Positions 33,707 through 56,076 of a DNA stretch of 64,000 bases are shown here, piece after piece. Both the position numbers and the translations under genes were made by a program. Positions within the stretch are counted from its first letter, which is position 1. Each line of letters starts with the position of its first letter. The DNA is from Sorangium aterium. GTDB taxonomy: Bacteria > Myxococcota_A > Polyangia > Polyangiales > Polyangiaceae. The notes beneath the pieces are model-generated. The model was not told the DNA's origin, did not search any database, and worked only from the letters and a program-made list of their open reading frames with translations. The stretch spans positions 3,162,001-3,226,000 of the forward strand of contig NZ_JAQNDK010000001.1 in the NCBI RefSeq assembly GCF_028368935.1, read 5' to 3'.

Positions 33707-33848
33707 GAACGTTTACGTGAACGTTTACGTGGTCGTGAACGTTTACGTGGACGTGGTCGTGGTCGTGGTCGTCAACGATAGGCCGTGAACGACCACGACC
33801 ACGACCACGACCACGTCCACGTTCACGTCCACGACCACGTCCACGTTG
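33707..33848. repeat. long imperfect palindrome of hexamer repeats between convergent genes
   Basis: The left arm (about 33707-33773) is built from ACGTGG, TCGTGG and ACGTTT hexamers. The right arm (about 33788-33848) is its near reverse complement (ACGACC, ACGTCC), with a loop of about 14 nt. A perfect core of about 27 bp lies next to the loop. It sits between the stops of the lipoprotein gene and yggX and could act as a bidirectional terminator or cruciform. A plus-strand frame through it would give His/Asp/Val repeats, which I regard as spurious. Confidence 0.8.
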
Positions 33849-34651: not shown

Positions 34652-35053
<402 letters not shown>

Positions 35054-35869
35054 TAAAATTTGGCGGGGGTCTGGGCGGGGCTGGACGGTGTGAAGCAGGG
35101 CACCGGTAGCGGATAGCCATAGCCGAACTGGCGGAACGGAACGGGGCGGGATGGCCGACTCGGGGCCCGCGAGCCGGATCCCGAGTCCGCCCTACTGGAA
35201 GCCGGGACCAGTGGAGCAGGGCCGGATGCAGGTGGACCGGCGGTGACCCCGATCCCCCAACCTAGCCGAGACGAAGCTGCCGGGCGGGCTCCTCTTGACA
35301 CGAGACGGTATCTCCGCTGACCTCGCAGAGGGAGGTGGCCATGGGGGTGGCTGTACGCGTTCGGTAGAGCACATCCTGAGGGTGGATCGAGCGGTAATCA
35401 GGACCAGAGAGACGCTATCTCGGCGCGGACCGCACCGACCGGCGAGTGGGGTTGCGCCGCCCGGTCGTCTGTCAACGAGACGGTCGTCTCGTTGTCAGTC
35501 TTCGCGAACGCTCTGGACTCCAAGCATGACGACGACGCCCGTACCCTCCACAGAACGCTCCAGCGGGAAACCATCGCGCTTGGCGACCCTGGAGTATCTC
35601 GACCGCGACGCCGCCCTCGCCCCCACCAGGTAGCAGGATCCGCGGGGTTGCCGATGCCCCGCCCTCGCCGGGTCTCCGCAGCGGCGGCCTATCTTCGGAG
35701 ATGCGCAGATAGGTCGCGGAAGTCGCTGCCTATTCACGGGAATACGCAGATATGCCGCGGAGCGTCGCGACCTATTCGCGGGAATACGCAGATATGCCGC
35801 GACGCTTCGCCGCCTACATGCTATAACCCGCCGCTAGGCCCTGCGACGCAACTGATTGCGACGTTAGGC
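35054..35869 (+). repeat. non-coding unit X, copy 1
   Basis: About 816 bp, highly similar with small indels to 37430-38135. It contains a perfect palindrome (35473-35494), two 42-bp tandem units (35729-35770 and 35771-35812, core GGGAATACGCAGATATGCCG), and at its end CGCAA-CTGA-TTGCG followed by an integron-type core site GTTAGGC (35863-35869). Open frames in the two copies are not conserved between them, so I see no gene here. The terminal core site could be an attI-like or degenerate attC site. Confidence 0.75.
35473..35494. promoter_or_regulatory. perfect palindrome CAACGAGACG-GT-CGTCTCGTTG
   Basis: Ten-bp arms around a 2-bp centre. In unit X copy 2 the equivalent site (37816-37843) has 13-bp perfect arms. 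Its conservation suggests an operator or recombinase site rather than a terminator, since no T-run follows. Confidence 0.65.
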
Positions 35870-35938
35870 GAGTTGTAGCCGCCGCCGAGCCACATCACCC
35901 GCAACGCTCGCACAGATGAAGATCTGATAGGAGGCAGC

Positions 35939-36790
35939 ATGGTAGGACGACGGGGCAAAAACTTGCGTGAAGGCGATCTGGCAGAGGGAATTGGAATCGA
36001 GCTTCTGCGGACCTTCTCTGCGGTTGCGCCCGTCCCTCGCACGGAGGACACAGGGATAGACGCGATATGCACTCTTCTTCGCCCTGAAGGACGCTTTCTG
36101 GTCGCCGAGGATTCCTTCCTTGGACAGATCAAATCTGCCTCTGTACGCAAGCTTGAATTTGAGACTGAGTCGTACGCCTGGCTGCTACGACTCAACCTGC
36201 CGCTCTATATCGCGAGCGTGGAACTCAAGTCTGCAACAATCGAGCTATTTACCATGCAACGCGCCGTGGACCGAATAGACGACGGATGGCATGGTGTCGT
36301 CGCATATCTCGACGCCGTGGAAGGTGACGATGGCGAGGACTACGACCACGGCCCAATCGTCCGGGACGGCGTTCACCACGTCTGCTTGGGCCCTCCCATC
36401 CTTCGTTGGTCAGCAATGGACGCCGCTTCTAACGAGTTCCGCAAAAACGCGTACGACGTGACCAAAAGGTGGATCGAGTTGGAAGCCATGAACATAGCAC
36501 TTCGACCTTACAGGTGCTGCAATGTTCCGCGGTGGAGCACGAATGGGCGCCCGGAAGTGACGTATTCGCGCTATGGCGCCCAGCTCGATTCGCCGCTCGT
36601 GGAGGACTTTGGAAAGCGCGTTGGAGCGGTGTTTATGAAGCTGGCAAACGACTCTAGCCCGTCCGATTCCGCAGCACTTCTTGCCACAATCCAAATTCTT
36701 CGTCGCAACGGATTCGGTGGGCGTGAAATTCAAATCGCTGAACTCGTCCTCCAGCGAACCGTCGGTAACCGTGAGCTTGTCAGTGAGTGA
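35939..36790 (+). CDS. DUF4365-like PD-(D/E)XK nuclease in a gene cassette
   Basis: The product is 283 residues. The N-terminal 130 residues resemble DUF4365: Glu16 (EGIGIELL), then DTGIDAICTL (Asp41) and LGQIKSAS (Gln63-x-Lys65), the E...D...QxK arrangement of PD-(D/E)XK nucleases, followed by WLLRLNLPLYIASVE. The C-terminal half is not recognised. AGGAGG precedes the ATG by 5 bp. Base composition is visibly less GC-rich than neighbouring core genes, pointing to transfer. It sits alone between GTTAGGC (35863) and an attC-like site (36860-36918), the layout of an integron cassette. DUF4365 genes are frequent cassette and defence cargo. Confidence 0.8.
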   Translation: MVGRRGKNLREGDLAEGIGIELLRTFSAVAPVPRTEDTGIDAICTLLRPEGRFLVAEDSFLGQIKSASVRKLEFETESYAWLLRLNLPLYIASVELKSATIELFTMQRAVDRIDDGWHGVVAYLDAVEGDDGEDYDHGPIVRDGVHHVCLGPPILRWSAMDAASNEFRKNAYDVTKRWIELEAMNIALRPYRCCNVPRWSTNGRPEVTYSRYGAQLDSPLVEDFGKRVGAVFMKLANDSSPSDSAALLATIQILRRNGFGGREIQIAELVLQRTVGNRELVSE

Positions 36791-36859
36791 TGCATTTGCA
36801 GATACTCAACGGGTGCAAGCGCGGTTCAGCTTGCTCTGTGCTGCAGACCGACAAGCATC

Positions 36860-36918
36860 GCCTAACTCTCGGATGGATCCGACGGCGCTTCGCACCGCGG
36901 CTCATCCGTGCGTTAGGC
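36860..36918 (+). repeat. attC-like (59-base element) integron recombination site 1
   Basis: Exactly 59 bp. It begins with R'' GCCTAAC and ends with the complementary R' GTTAGGC. Inside, CGGATG-G-ATCCG on the left pairs with CGGCTCATCCG on the right, leaving one unpaired G in the left arm, the extra-helical base typical of attC. The middle (CCGACGGCGCTTCGCACCGCGG) resembles the aadA-type attC loop. It lies 70 bp after the nuclease gene, in the expected orientation. Confidence 0.78.
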
Positions 36919-36961
36919 CGCTTACGCGCCGGAGTGCTCGACCTCCTTGTCTCTGCTGCAG

Positions 36962-37037
36962 CGAGCAGCCGCCCGATGGTCTCGTGGGCGATGCGCGGCC
37001 TCGACGTCGCCCGCCGCGAGCGCGAGCCCAGCCGGGG
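36962..37037 (-). repeat. partial copy of the small repeated gene, unit Y1
   Basis: These bases repeat the 3' part of the adjacent small gene (GCAGCCGCCCGATGGTCTCG block), immediately downstream of its stop. The same tandem arrangement recurs at 39071-39147, so it predates the unit duplication. Confidence 0.65.
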
Positions 37038-37283
37038 CTACCCGCCGCGCCGGCTGCGCTCGGCAGCGAGGTCGATGACGCCGGCCGCATCGGCTCCCGG
37101 CGCGCCGAGCAGCCGCCCGATGGTCTCGTGGGCGATGCGCGCGGCCTCGATGTCGCCCGCCGCGAGCGCCGCCCTCATACCGTCCGCGAGCTGGCCCAGC
37201 AGCACCGTCCGCGGGTCCGCCGGTTTCGTCTGTGATTCGTCCGGCTCACGACGTTCCGCGCACTTAGCCGCCGTCGATGGCAC
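37038..37283 (-). CDS. small repeated protein, copy Y1
   Basis: 81 residues if GTG at 37283 is the start. The conserved part reads PADPRTVLLGQLADGMRAAL, AAGDIEAARIAHETIGRLLG and GVIDLAAERSRRGG: two helices and an Arg-rich tail. No known family comes to mind. A paralogue with high identity is at 39148-39384, and fragments lie at 46.3, 51.3 and 52.5 kb, always on the minus strand. Copy Y1 has ACG where Y2 has its ATG, so it may be poorly or not translated. Confidence 0.5.
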   Translation of the reverse strand: MPSTAAKCAERREPDESQTKPADPRTVLLGQLADGMRAALAAGDIEAARIAHETIGRLLGAPGADAAGVIDLAAERSRRGG

Positions 37284-37349
37284 GCTTGCCGCTCCCGTCG
37301 CATGCGGAAACCTACGCGATCCCTGCGGATCCCTACCCTCGGCAGGCGT

Positions 37350-37429
37350 TTCGATTCCCGGCGCCTCCACCAAGAAGACACGGCGAGAGCCGTGTCTTCT
37401 TGCTTTTGTGGGATCTGCGTGTGACCTGA
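37350..37429 (+). repeat. att-like direct repeat, copy 2
   Basis: Exact 80-bp copy of 34974-35053 (ssrA T-arm end, CCA, terminator, flank). The sequence to its left (CTCGGCAGGCG) does not match the tmRNA, so this is a truncated ssrA end, as expected at a junction between tandem insertions. Confidence 0.88.
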
Positions 37430-38135
37430 CGAATTTTGGCGAGGTCTGGCGGGGCTCGACGGTGTGAGACAGGGCACCGGCAGTGGGTGGCGATAGCCGA
37501 ACGGGCGGAACGGAACGGGGCGGGATGGCCGACTGAGGGGCCTGCGATCCGGATCCCGGGTCCGCCCTGCTGGAAGCCGGGACCAGTGACGCGGACGCGG
37601 AACCGGTTGTAGGTGGACCGGAGGCGACCCCGATCCCCCTACCTACCCGAGACGATGCAGCCGAGCGGGCGCCTCTTGACACGGGACAGTAGCTCCGCTG
37701 ACCTCGTAGAGGGAGGTGGCCATGAGGATGGCTCGACCGGCCATGAGGGCCGGAGAGACGCGCTCTCGGCGCGGACCGCATCCGTCGGCGCGTAGGGTTG
37801 TGCCGTCGGATCTTCTGTCAACGAGACGGACGTCTCGTTGACAATCTACGCGAGCGTTCTGGACTCCAGGCATGACGACGCCGCCCTCGCCCCAGGTAGC
37901 AGGATCCGCGGGGTTGCCGATGCCCCGCCCTCGCCGGGTTTCCGCAGCGGCGGCCTCTCTTCGGAGATGCGCGGATAGGTCGCGAAAATCGCTGCCTATT
38001 CACGGGAATACGCAGATGTGCCGCGGAGCATCGCGACCTATTCGCGTGAATACTGAGATTGGCCGCGGCGCCTCGCCGCCTACATGCTATAGACCGCCGC
38101 TAGGCCGCGCAACGCAACTGATTGCGATGTTGGGC
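37430..38135 (+). repeat. non-coding unit X, copy 2
   Basis: Closely similar to 35054-35869 with deletions. It keeps the palindrome (37816-37843), the GAATACGCAGAT repeats and the end CGCAA-CTGA-TTGCG (38113-38126) followed by core site GTTGGGC (38129-38135). No conserved open frame is seen. Confidence 0.75.
37816..37843. promoter_or_regulatory. perfect 13-bp-arm palindrome
   Basis: TGTCAACGAGACG-GA-CGTCTCGTTGACA. It is the counterpart of 35473-35494 in unit X copy 1, with a longer perfect dyad. A TetR-like operator or recombinase site is possible; no adjacent regulator gene is in the unit. Confidence 0.65.
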
Positions 38136-38169
38136 AGGCAACGGGGCAGCTATCTACTTCGGGTGACGT

Positions 38170-38916
38170 ATGACTCACACCAAGGTCCTCCTCAGTTACA
38201 TCGCAGCGGCGCTTGCATCGAGCCTTGTATCGGTTTCCTGCTCGCGACGCGAACAGTCGGAACCCGGACGAGACGAATCAACTGCTCCGTCGCACGCGCC
38301 TTCCGTAGCGAGGTCCGCGATCTCGGATCCCGTGGAACCAAGCCCGGAGCCCACGCTTCAGCCACAAGCCGCGAACGACTTACCTCAACCTACGCCTCGC
38401 TCCCCTCCGATCCTCGAGGCGGACCCGAATTCGAAGGGAGTGAGAATGGGCAAGCCGCTTTTTTCCTGCTACTACGTGAGTTTTGCCTGGGGCCTTAGTA
38501 AGCATCACGGGCACGTCATTGATGATCAGGGCCGGATTTGGTTCTATGACCTGGGAAGGACCTGGGATCCCCAACCCGCCGGGGACGGACTCTATCTTGA
38601 GACCGGGCTGAGAGAGCGATTCAGAAATCCCGTCCTCCAGTCGCGCCGCGTTCCTCCTGCGCAGCTGGCCGACATGCGGAAGAAGGCGGAGATCGCTCGA
38701 GGCGGTCTAATCGAGAAGAAGTCCATGGCGCGTGATGCGGGCAGCGCCGGCTGCGAGGCCTACCTGTGGGAGAGATCCGACGCGTACCGGGAAGTTAAGC
38801 TCGGCACCAGTGGCGGCTATGAGATTCGCAACTCCAGCTTGGAGGCCGGCCATCTCCAAGAGTGGCTACGGGAAGAAGTCGGCATCGGCATCCCTCCGCA
38901 GTCCCGGCAGAAGTAA
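38170..38916 (+). CDS. cassette-borne lipoprotein of unknown function
   Basis: The product is 248 residues. The signal peptide (KVLLSYIAAALASSLVSVSC) carries a Cys24 consistent with a lipobox. A Pro/Ser-rich linker runs to about 90. The globular part has HHGHVIDDQGRIWFYDLG near 116 and ends with a helix (LQEWLREEVGIG). I recognise no family. It sits between core site GTTGGGC (38129) and the second attC-like site (38941-39026), mirroring the nuclease cassette. Its composition is intermediate. Confidence 0.75.
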   Translation: MTHTKVLLSYIAAALASSLVSVSCSRREQSEPGRDESTAPSHAPSVARSAISDPVEPSPEPTLQPQAANDLPQPTPRSPPILEADPNSKGVRMGKPLFSCYYVSFAWGLSKHHGHVIDDQGRIWFYDLGRTWDPQPAGDGLYLETGLRERFRNPVLQSRRVPPAQLADMRKKAEIARGGLIEKKSMARDAGSAGCEAYLWERSDAYREVKLGTSGGYEIRNSSLEAGHLQEWLREEVGIGIPPQSRQK

Positions 38917-38940
38917 TGGCTCCGAAGCGTACACGAAGCT

Positions 38941-39026
38941 GCCCAACGAGGCCATGCACCCGACCGGCGCGGTCGCTCGCCTCCGGCTCGCTCGCGCGAC
39001 GGCGGGTGATGGCCAAGTCGTTAGGC
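38941..39026 (+). repeat. attC-like integron recombination site 2
   Basis: 86 bp, starting with R'' GCCCAAC and ending with R' GTTAGGC. GGCCAT-G-CACCCG on the left pairs with CGGGTGATGGCC on the right, leaving one extra G unpaired, as in site 1. The loop is longer and GC-rich. It lies 25 bp after the lipoprotein gene. Sequence after the R' site is nearly identical in both units (GTTAGGCCGCTTACGCGCCG), so the cassette junction falls at the same place in each. Confidence 0.75.
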
Positions 39027-39070
39027 CGCTTACGCGCCGGAGTGCTGGACCTCCTTGTCTCTGCTGCGCC

Positions 39071-39147
39071 GACCAGCCGCCCGATGATCTCGTGGGCGAT
39101 GCGAGCCGCCTCGACGTCGCCCGCGGCGAGCGCCGCCCCGTCCGGCG
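39071..39147 (-). repeat. partial copy of the small repeated gene, unit Y2
   Basis: Counterpart of 36962-37037: a fragment of the small gene's 3' half lying just beyond the Y2 stop, with higher identity to the intact copy. Confidence 0.65.
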
Positions 39148-39384
39148 CTACCCGCCGCGCCGGGTGCGCTCGGCGGCGAGGTCGATGACGCCGGCCGTGT
39201 CGGCCCCCTGCGCGCCGAGCAGCCGCCCGATGGTCTCGTGGGCGATGCGAGCCGCCTCGACGTCGCCCGCGGCGAGCGCCGCCCCCATGCCTTCCGCGAG
39301 CTGGCCGAGCAGCACCGTCCGCGGGTCGGCCGGTTTCGTCCGCGATTCGTCTGCCTGACGCGGTTTCGCGCACTTAGCTGCCAT
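39148..39384 (-). CDS. small repeated protein, copy Y2
   Basis: 78 residues from the ATG at 39384: MAAKCAKPRQADESRTK, then the TVLLGQLAEGMGAALAAGD helix, VEAARIAHETIGRLLG, and GVIDLAAERTRRGG. It is the best-preserved member of the family. Reading is toward the attC-like site, opposite to the cassette gene. Function is unknown. The Arg-rich end could bind nucleic acid, but this is speculation. Confidence 0.55.
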   Translation of the reverse strand: MAAKCAKPRQADESRTKPADPRTVLLGQLAEGMGAALAAGDVEAARIAHETIGRLLGAQGADTAGVIDLAAERTRRGG

Positions 39385-39459
39385 CGACGGCACGGTTGCC
39401 GCTCCCGTCGCATGCGGAAACCTACGCGATCCCTGCGGATCCCTACCCTCGGCAGGCGT

Positions 39460-39538
39460 TTCGATTCCGGCGCCTCCACCAAGAAGACACGGCGAGAGCC
39501 GTGTTTTCTGCTTTTTGTGTGCCCTGCGTGTGACCTGA
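39460..39538 (+). repeat. att-like direct repeat, copy 3 (degenerate)
   Basis: Third copy of the ssrA 3' end, with one C lost in the T-arm (GATTCCGG) and several changes in the terminator and beyond. It still ends GCGTGTGACCTGA. Unit X does not follow it; from about 39550 the sequence is unrelated, so this looks like the outer end of the tandem island. The 296 bp to 39834 show no gene. Confidence 0.85.
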
Positions 39539-51299: not shown

Positions 51300-51420
51300 G
51301 GTCTCTCGTGGGCGATGCGCGCCGCCTCCACGTCTTCCGCCGCGAGCGCGGGCCCAGCCGGGACTACCCGCCGCGCCGGGTGCGCTCGGCGGCGAGGTCG
51401 ATGACGCCGGCCGCGTCGTA
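51300..51420 (-). repeat. fragment of the small repeated gene
   Basis: Carries the IAHE-type helix end and the GVIDLAAERTRRGG-type tail with an internal deletion. It is joined directly to the copied SDR fragment. The gap to 51526 shows nothing further. Confidence 0.65.
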
Positions 51421-51526
51421 AGCGGCCGAGGTGTGACGCCTCGTTCACGCGTCGCGTCTCGCGCTGCGATTCGGACGGAAAATCCGCATGGATCGGGAAG
51501 GTACGAGCTTTGCTGCTACCTCCGTC

Positions 51527-52435
51527 ATGAGGAACTACTTTCGTTCGCTGGTTCTCGTGGGGGCTCCTTTCATCTTCGTCGCGGGCTGCGGCGGATCGGA
51601 CGGCGACACGAGCGCCGAGCCCACCGAGGCGCCGGCAACCCCGTCGACTCCGGCGGAGGTAGACACCACCTATGAACAGATCGGGCGCGGCTGCGGTGAC
51701 AGCGGCTCCCTCGTTCGCTCGCTGAAGCACGTCCCTGCGCTCACCACCAACAACCTCTGGATCGCCCCAAACAACGACGCCGCCGGCCTGGCCGCGTCCA
51801 AGAACGACAATGGCTGGGGAGCGAGCGTGGGTGTCTACGAGCTCGGGTTCGAGTCGAGCGGGGACAACATGGAGAGCCACTCCGCCGAGCAGGCCGCACG
51901 CTGCGACGCGGTCAGCGAGATCTTCGACCCCGCCGGGGACGGCGCGCGGCAACGCTTCCTCAACGTCCTCGTCTACGCCGGCGATCACCCGCACGCCGAG
52001 GCGATGCCCGCCGAGGGTCTCCCCGCCGCGGTCGAGGCGCCGGTCCGCCTGAAGGGCTATCTGGACGTGGCCGAGGGCACGCGCGAGGAGATCGAAGACG
52101 GCGTCGTGTACCGGGACGCGCAGCACCAGTACCTGCCCATCTACGTTCGCTGCGAGGAGCCCATGAAGATCACCTACGAGGAGCGCCTGTTTTCGCGCGC
52201 GGAGGTCGAGGTGCTGAAGATCGACACCCGCATCTGTCGCCCCGTTGCCGACGACGGCTACGGCTGCCTCTCCGAGCGCCCGCAGCCGATCGAGGGTGCG
52301 TGCACCTTCGTGGCGGCCGACGCGAAGTACGTGGCGACGAGCGGCGAGGAGCACAACCTATCGCTCGGTGGCCGCATCGAGCGCGGCGAACAACTCAGCT
52401 ACAAGATCACGGTCGACCGCTTCGCCTTCCACTGA
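51527..52435 (+). CDS. lipoprotein of unknown function
   Basis: The product is 302 residues. The signal peptide MRNYFRSLVLVGAPFIFVAGC has a lipobox with Cys21. A Thr/Pro/Glu linker is followed by a domain with about seven Cys (GRGCGDSG, AARCDAVSE, IYVRCEEPMK, RICRPVADDGYGC). It contains LKGYLDVAEGTREEIEDG and ends in beta strands. It is not recognised. An ATG 13 codons upstream is open but would blur the signal peptide. Confidence 0.75.
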   Translation: MRNYFRSLVLVGAPFIFVAGCGGSDGDTSAEPTEAPATPSTPAEVDTTYEQIGRGCGDSGSLVRSLKHVPALTTNNLWIAPNNDAAGLAASKNDNGWGASVGVYELGFESSGDNMESHSAEQAARCDAVSEIFDPAGDGARQRFLNVLVYAGDHPHAEAMPAEGLPAAVEAPVRLKGYLDVAEGTREEIEDGVVYRDAQHQYLPIYVRCEEPMKITYEERLFSRAEVEVLKIDTRICRPVADDGYGCLSERPQPIEGACTFVAADAKYVATSGEEHNLSLGGRIERGEQLSYKITVDRFAFH

Positions 52436-52498
52436 ACGAGGGTCCTCGGTCAGGGAGCGTGACGTCGGAGCGCGTGCACGTGCACGGGGATGCCCTCG

Positions 52499-52629
52499 AG
52501 GGCGCGCCGAGCAGCCGCCCGATCGTCTCGCGGGCGATGCGCGCCGCCTCGACGTCGCCCGCGGCGAGCGCCGCCCGCATGCCTTCCGCGAGCTGGCCGA
52601 GCAGCACCGTCCGCGGATCCGCCGATGCC
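52499..52629 (-). repeat. fragment of the small repeated gene
   Basis: Retains the central TVLLGQLAEGMRAALAAGD and VEAARIARETIGRLLGAP part, with no tail and no recognisable start. It lies between the lipoprotein gene and the SDR gene. Confidence 0.7.
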
Positions 52630-55894: not shown

Positions 55895-56076
55895 ACGAAG
55901 GAGACCAGATCGCGAGGGCCGTCGGAGCGATCGTAGACTCTGGCGCGCTCGCCAACGCAGCAACGATGGCTAACAAGCCGTTGCGGCTGCCGGGGACGCG
56001 CGCTGACGCAAGCATCCCCGCAGCTGAACGGCCAGACGTCAGACCTCGCGCAGGCCCACACGCTTCAGGAGAAATC

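What the first reader, a model, noticed from the sequence alone, without database searches (positions are those of the whole stretch)
35863..39026. CALIN-like pair of integron gene cassettes in a myxobacterium
Two genes in the same orientation are each bounded by GTTRRRY core sites and followed by imperfect inverted repeats of 59 and 86 bp. These carry matching R''/R' boxes (GCCTAAC...GTTAGGC and GCCCAAC...GTTAGGC) and a single extra-helical G in the left stem, as in attC sites. Sequence after each R' is the same, and sequence before each cassette is the same. Cargo differs between the two. No intI is in the window.
Basis: partly seen in the sequence, partly recalled or inferred. Interest (0 to 1): 0.88.

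Follow-up and report, generated by a model that had tools for sequence, protein, structure and literature searches.

The report
Twin integron cassettes on orphan attI sites
Next to the tmRNA gene of a Sorangium bacterium, two tandem copies of a small genomic-island remnant each hold an integron docking site (attI) with one captured gene cassette but no integrase, and other Sorangium genomes carry more such integrase-less docking sites that draw on the same pool of cassettes.

Summary
A covariance model built from 26 attC sites outside Sorangium finds both proposed sites at the stated coordinates and strand (48 and 36 bits, E ~1e-8 and ~5e-6). The repeats are far larger than reported: about 2.1-2.4 kb tandem units that begin at the 3' end of an intact tmRNA gene (34652-34996), each ending in a copy of the last ~23 bp of that gene. 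Each unit looks like a remnant of a tmRNA-targeted genomic island.

The sequence before each cassette is an attI site: 72% identical to the leader of this genome's only integron-integrase gene, on another contig, with both stopping at the core site. That integrase is disabled (in-frame stop, catalytic His lost). Five Sorangium genomes hold 17 attI copies, 5 beside intI and 12 without; several integrase-less ones carry attC cassettes. Whole cassettes with core-site boundaries are shared between two integrase-less platforms (90%) and between one and an intI array (95%), so the integron reaction, in trans or before intI loss, is the best explanation. IntI-less attI arrays have one precedent (a Shewanella prophage). 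New here are the genus-wide set and the tandem tmRNA-island setting.

The parts
34652..34996 (+). intact tmRNA gene (ssrA), tag ANDNAYAVAA; apparent target of the island
   Evidence: ARAGORN; Rfam RF00023, 123.6 bits
34974..34996 (+). 3' end of ssrA, first copy of the direct repeat (island attachment-like site)
   Evidence: repeated at 37350-37372 and 39460-39481
34995..35026 (+). intrinsic terminator, repeated at 37371-37402 and 39482-39509
34997..35674 (+). left arm of unit 1 (island left end)
   Evidence: 81% identical to unit 2 left arm; the first ~70 bp recurs after ssrA and at other ssrA-end copies in other Sorangium genomes
35675..35869 (+). attI-1, ending in core GTTAGGC 35863-35869
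   Evidence: nhmmer model built without the window copies, E 6e-43; 72% identical to own intI leader
35864..36912 (+). cassette A, crossover to crossover (1049 bp)
   Evidence: 5' TTAGGC complements its own R'' GCCTAAC
35939..36790 (+). cassette A gene, 283 aa, no family match; one relative at 42% identity in the order
36860..36918 (+). attC of cassette A
   Evidence: model R1, 48 bits, E 1e-8; fold z -5.6
36912..36963 (+). start of a further cassette, truncated (core plus about 45 bp)
   Evidence: 92% match to a segment inside an attC array of another Sorangium genome, L233:6937-6886
36969..37349 (+). right arm of unit 1 (island right end)
   Evidence: 90% identical to the right end of a 9.6-kb ssrA island in G166
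37350..37372 (+). ssrA 3'-end fragment closing unit 1
37373..37938 (+). left arm of unit 2
37939..38135 (+). attI-2, ending in core GTTGGGC 38129-38135
   Evidence: nhmmer E 9e-40
38130..39020 (+). cassette B, crossover to crossover (891 bp)
   Evidence: 5' TTGGGC complements its own R'' GCCCAAC although its R' is GTTAGGC
38170..38916 (+). cassette B gene, 248-aa lipoprotein-like protein, no family match
   Evidence: 83% identical ortholog beside ssrA in G167
38941..39026 (+). attC of cassette B
   Evidence: model R1, 36 bits, E 5e-6; fold z -3.8
39020..39071 (+). same truncated cassette start as 36912-36963
39072..39459 (+). right arm of unit 2
   Evidence: 91% identical to unit 1
39460..39481 (+). 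ssrA 3'-end fragment closing unit 2
55968..56044 (+). possible degenerate third attC (R' GTCAGAC)
   Evidence: 22 bits, E 0.007

Best explanation
These are two integron gene cassettes, each docked in its own attI site, inside two tandem remnants of a tmRNA(ssrA)-targeted genomic island. An integron integrase of the Sorangium type (IntI, a tyrosine recombinase) recombined the folded bottom strand of each circular cassette's attC with the double-stranded attI, cutting between G and TT of the core. Each attI therefore received a different first cassette, and everything to the left of the core and to the right of the attC R' box stayed common. No integrase gene lies at these attI sites, so IntI acted from another locus or before it was lost locally. 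The tandem arrangement with ssrA 3' ends at each boundary arose by repeated integration of, or recombination between, island copies at ssrA. In this strain the only intI left is damaged, so the two platforms are probably frozen; other strains keep intact intI genes together with integrase-less attI platforms. Shown: attC identity, attI homology, cargo exchange at the core, cassette sharing between platforms, ssrA repeats. Inferred: IntI in trans, how the attI copies spread, present inactivity.
For: attC model trained outside Sorangium hits both sites. The attI profile built without the window copies hits both left flanks, ending exactly at the core. Across 17 attI copies identity is 72% in the 30 bp before the core and 31% after it. 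Each window cassette's 5' core complements its own R'', even in unit 2 where its own R' does not. In 13 Sorangium cassettes where the 5' and 3' cores fit R'' unequally, 11 favour the 5' core (p 0.011). Whole cassettes with core-site boundaries are shared by two intI-less platforms of one genome (90%) and by an intI-less platform and an intI array of different genomes (95%). The So ceGT47 integrase passes the TIGR02249 integron-integrase cutoff (406 vs 265 bits). Own intI has an in-frame TGA and HTLR changed to QPLR, dN/dS 0.27 vs 0.09-0.10 among intact copies. ssrA repeats and right-arm homology to an ssrA island with its own integrase in G166.
Against: No recombination was assayed. Two of the 12 intI-less attI copies keep pieces of intI (L098, L102), so at least part of the set is simple integrase loss. 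The ssrA repeats are short (about 23 bp plus terminator), and no island integrase lies in the window, so island-driven tandem integration is inferred. Cassette B's gene shows no purifying selection against its ortholog (dN/dS about 1.1), so its function is unproven.
Confidence: 0.88

Rival explanations
1. Decayed complete integrons: each unit once had its own intI beside attI, the gene was later deleted, and no trans action was ever needed.
For: Two intI-less attI loci keep intI pieces (L098 about 830 bp, L102 two fragments); the own intI is itself decaying; CALINs have been proposed to be degraded integrons (PMC9024848).
Against: No intI trace in the window, L096, L097, L231, L237 or L238; the same cassette sits in two intI-less platforms of a genome whose intI lies elsewhere; two tandem copies would need the loss before duplication and then two different first cassettes.
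Confidence: 0.35
2. Homologous recombination or unequal crossing-over between tandem island copies swapped the cargo, and the hairpins are ordinary terminators or chance inverted repeats.
For: Long tandem repeats do flank the cargo.
Against: Cargo junctions fall on the core sites on both sides; hairpins fit the attC model with E 1e-8 and 5e-6; core/R'' complementarity; unrelated loci with the same leader show the same junction.
Confidence: 0.04
3. The cassettes were inserted at secondary (attG-like) chromosomal sites, not at attI.
For: Off-target IntI insertion at non-attI sites is described (PMC12444791); attC sites without a detected attI nearby also exist in these genomes.
Against: The left flank is homologous over about 190 bp to the leaders of five intI genes and ends at the core.
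Confidence: 0.05

Closest known systems
CALIN (cluster of attC sites lacking an integron-integrase)
   Same: Two attC sites about 2 kb apart, same strand, no intI nearby; fits the two-attC minimum of IntegronFinder 2 (PMC9024848).
   Different: Each cassette has its own recognisable attI and the two are separate platforms, not neighbours in one array.
CALIN with its own attI in Shewanella prophage M16-3 (PMC9892861)
   Same: An integrase-less cassette array that begins with an attI, in a genome region that also holds a complete integron with the same attI type.
   Different: That is one case in an inactive prophage; here 12 integrase-less copies occur in Sorangium genomes, two of them in tandem at ssrA.
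Sedentary chromosomal integrons of Xanthomonas with CALINs at other loci (PMC12444791)
   Same: Progressive loss of intI activity, CALINs at recurrent secondary loci, and the statement that CALINs can be mobilised in trans by IntI.
   Different: The passages I read do not report attI at those CALINs.
tmRNA-targeted genomic islands (for example Dehalococcoides ssrA islands, PMC3146451)
   Same: Islands integrated at ssrA; here units bounded by copies of the ssrA 3' end.
   Different: Here the units have lost the island integrase and hold an attI with a cassette instead (only the abstract of the comparison paper was seen).

Membership tests
Integron gene cassette with attC | R''/R' boxes, L''/L' stem with extra-helical base, folds as a hairpin on the bottom strand | tested here: met
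   Covariance model hits over the full model, 48 and 36 bits; folds
Integron gene cassette with attC | Boundaries at G/TT; the six bases after the crossover complement the cassette's own R'' | tested here: met
   6 of 6 for both window cassettes
Integron gene cassette with attC | Same cassette found in different platforms with exact boundaries | tested here: inconclusive
   Shown for other Sorangium cassettes; not for A or B, where B occurs only in the orthologous place in G167
Integron gene cassette with attC | Recombination by IntI | not testable with these tools
   Needs an in vivo or in vitro assay
attI site | Homology to the leader beside intI, ending at the core site | tested here: met
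attI site | Bound and used by IntI | not testable with these tools
   No assay
Complete integron | intI next to attI | tested here: not met
   No intI or remnant in the window; one damaged intI elsewhere in the genome
CALIN | At least two attC sites close together without intI | tested here: met
   but each has its own attI
ssrA-targeted genomic island | Intact ssrA on one side and displaced 3'-end fragments at the unit ends | tested here: met
ssrA-targeted genomic island | Own integrase | tested here: not met
   No PF00589 hit in the window; present in a related island of G166

The most novel reading that the evidence does not exclude
A distributed integron: in Sorangium one integron-integrase serves many attI docking sites scattered over the chromosome, some of them carried and multiplied by tmRNA-targeted islands, so that cassette capture is spread over several loci and not a single array.
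Probability: 0.35. Interest if true: 0.72.

Novelty: new variant of a known kind. Interest (0 to 1): 0.52.

Why it matters
attI sites outside class 1 integrons are poorly described and not searched for by IntegronFinder (PMC9024848), so integrase-less arrays are usually read as mere relics. A genus-wide attI family with 12 integrase-less copies, cassette sharing between platforms, and intact intI in sister strains makes it directly testable whether CALINs with attI still capture cassettes in trans. It also suggests a route by which attI can be multiplied: inside a tmRNA-targeted island.

Tried and rejected
The first structural scan was too strict for diverse attC and was relaxed. Rfam gave no attC-like hit here. 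Cargo gave no family in Pfam, NCBIfam or PADLOC, and cassette A none in the PDB. Looked for intI remnants in the left arms: none. The promoter scan found nothing in the attI region. Looked for attC beside the 42% relative of cassette A in another family (L302): none. The first attI profile search failed on a file error and was repeated. The idea that the right arm directly after attC is the plain island end was dropped, because its first ~52 bp match the inside of another cassette array.

Full report
Check of the observation. The sequence contains what was described. Cassette A runs from core GTTAGGC (35863-35869) to the 59-bp inverted repeat 36860-36918; cassette B from core GTTGGGC (38129-38135) to the 86-bp repeat 38941-39026. 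Bottom-strand folds are far better than shuffles for the first (z -5.6) and better for the second (z -3.8). Top-strand folds are also good (z -3.7 and -3.9), as expected of imperfect palindromes.

The attC test. The Rfam search gave no attC-like hit here, so I built a model. Seven attC sites came from class 1 integron plasmids (aadB, aadA2, aac(6')-Ib, aac(6')-IIa, cmlA5, aadA16, qacL) and 19 from the sequence beside intI genes of other bacteria; none was from Sorangium. The imposed structure is well supported by covariation (92.5% of cells paired against 74.4% in shuffles and 23-44% when slid). The 19 were picked with a structural filter of mine, so the model leans to that form, and calibration is short, so E-values are rough. 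The model finds both window sites at exactly the reported coordinates on the + strand, 48.0 bits (E 1e-8) and 36.0 bits (E 5e-6); the next hit in the window is a weak one at 55968-56044 (22 bits, E 0.007) and the last is noise.

The left flank is attI. The window's genome (13.47 Mb, 7 contigs) contains one integron-integrase gene, on contig C4. The ~193 bp before its first cassette are 72% identical to window 35677-35869, and both stop at the core. Same-genus genomes hold intact intI (86% identical protein). The So ceGT47 protein passes the integron-integrase family cutoff TIGR02249 (406 against 265 bits). I collected 17 attI copies in five Sorangium genomes: 5 beside intI and 12 without it. 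Their mean pairwise identity is 0.58 (-60 to -31), 0.72 (-30 to -1), 0.77 in the core, 0.31 just after it and 0.27 further on. A profile made from nine copies, none from the window, recovers 35675-35869 (E 6e-43) and 37939-38135 (E 9e-40). A search of the family found strong matches only within this genus.

Arrays after attI. With the attC model, every intI-linked attI is followed by one to five attC sites, and the intI-less copies L096, L097, L099, L102 and L238 by one, two, two, four and two. Others, such as L231 (93% identical to the window attI), carry a different gene starting at the core but no detectable attC. Counts from the whole-genome scan are lower bounds, since only the best 150 candidates per genome were scored.

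Signatures of the reaction. In an integrated cassette the six bases after the crossover come from the cassette's own R', so the 5' core should complement its own R''. Both window cassettes do this perfectly: A has 5' TTAGGC and R'' GCCTAAC; B has 5' TTGGGC and R'' GCCCAAC, while B's present R' is GTTAGGC. In Sorangium, of 13 cassettes in which the two ends fit unequally, 11 fit better at the 5' end (p 0.011). Detection of attC favours R''/R' agreement, so this test is conservative. Whole cassettes are shared with boundaries at the core sites: one of 1.1 kb in two intI-less platforms of the same genome (90%), and one of 1.3 kb between an intI-less platform of G164 and the intI array of G165 (95%). 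In the second pair the alignment runs about 80 bp further left, into the preceding attC, which is also similar.

The tmRNA setting. An intact tmRNA gene lies at 34652-34996. Its last 23 bp and the following terminator recur at 37350-37402 and 39460-39509, so the region is two tandem units. Copies of this ssrA end are numerous in Sorangium genomes. In So ceGT47 ssrA is followed by a 9.6-kb island with a tyrosine integrase next to ssrA and with a right end 90% identical to the window's right arm, closed by the ssrA end. The window units therefore look like such islands with most of the interior replaced by attI and a cassette. The first ~52 bp after each attC match the inside of a cassette array in G165, so a second cassette was probably truncated there before the units diverged. 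In strain G167 a single unit with the ortholog of cassette B (83% protein identity) sits beside ssrA, with a fragment of attI and without attC.

State of the integrase. The own intI has an in-frame TGA where relatives have Arg, the catalytic-box motif HTLR reads QPLR, and its dN/dS to relatives is 0.27 against 0.09-0.10 among intact copies. So this strain probably no longer moves cassettes unless an integrase is supplied. Trans action is plausible in the strains with intact intI but is not shown. Two intI-less loci still hold intI pieces, so local loss also happened.

Comparison with the literature. CALINs are regarded as degraded integrons and IntegronFinder does not look for attI outside class 1 (PMC9024848). 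Mobilisation of CALINs by IntI in trans is accepted as possible (PMC12444791). An attI-bearing CALIN has been described in at least one paper I could search, in a Shewanella prophage (PMC9892861). I found no report on integrons of Sorangium in the held library, which lacks most subscription journals. I therefore file this as a new variant of a known kind.

Noticed in passing
window 55968-56044 (+): Possible degenerate third attC (GGCTAAC...GTCAGAC). Its R'' starts where a 105-bp stretch 96% identical to the start of a beta-lactamase-like gene next to an attI-like site in G164 (L101) ends.
   Followed up: partly
window 38941-38947 and L237:8455: Homology of cassette B to its G167 ortholog ends inside the R'' box, and the same happens at 55968; recombination at R'' or attC loss, not explained.
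   Followed up: partly
window 35469-35498 and 37815-37843: A 13-14 bp palindrome (TGTCAACGAGACG..CGTCTCGTTGACA) in each left arm, operator-like.
   Followed up: no
window 33743-33824: Long, nearly perfect inverted repeat of GTGGTCGTGG-type sequence, matching miRNA-like models below their thresholds.
   Followed up: no
L241 and L246 (G000 C1:2325625 and C2:703285): A 1.2-1.6 kb stretch with a strong attC (59 bits) is present twice in the same genome at about 98% identity.
   Followed up: partly
L029, L092, L094, L095, L102: Many Sorangium core sites read GTTCGGC, with C at the fourth base, outside the usual GTTRRRY consensus.
   Followed up: partly
window 35677-35830 and homologous attI copies: The attI leader contains several ~41-bp imperfect repeats with CCTATCT...AGATAGG palindromes, perhaps integrase-binding or regulatory.
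   Followed up: no
window 38170-38916: Cassette B's gene shows dN/dS about 1.1 against its G167 ortholog although the frame stays open.
   Followed up: yes
window 51301-52619: This stretch is 95% identical to the sequence right after cassette B in G167, so about 12 kb between 39.0 and 51.3 kb are extra in this strain.
   Followed up: partly
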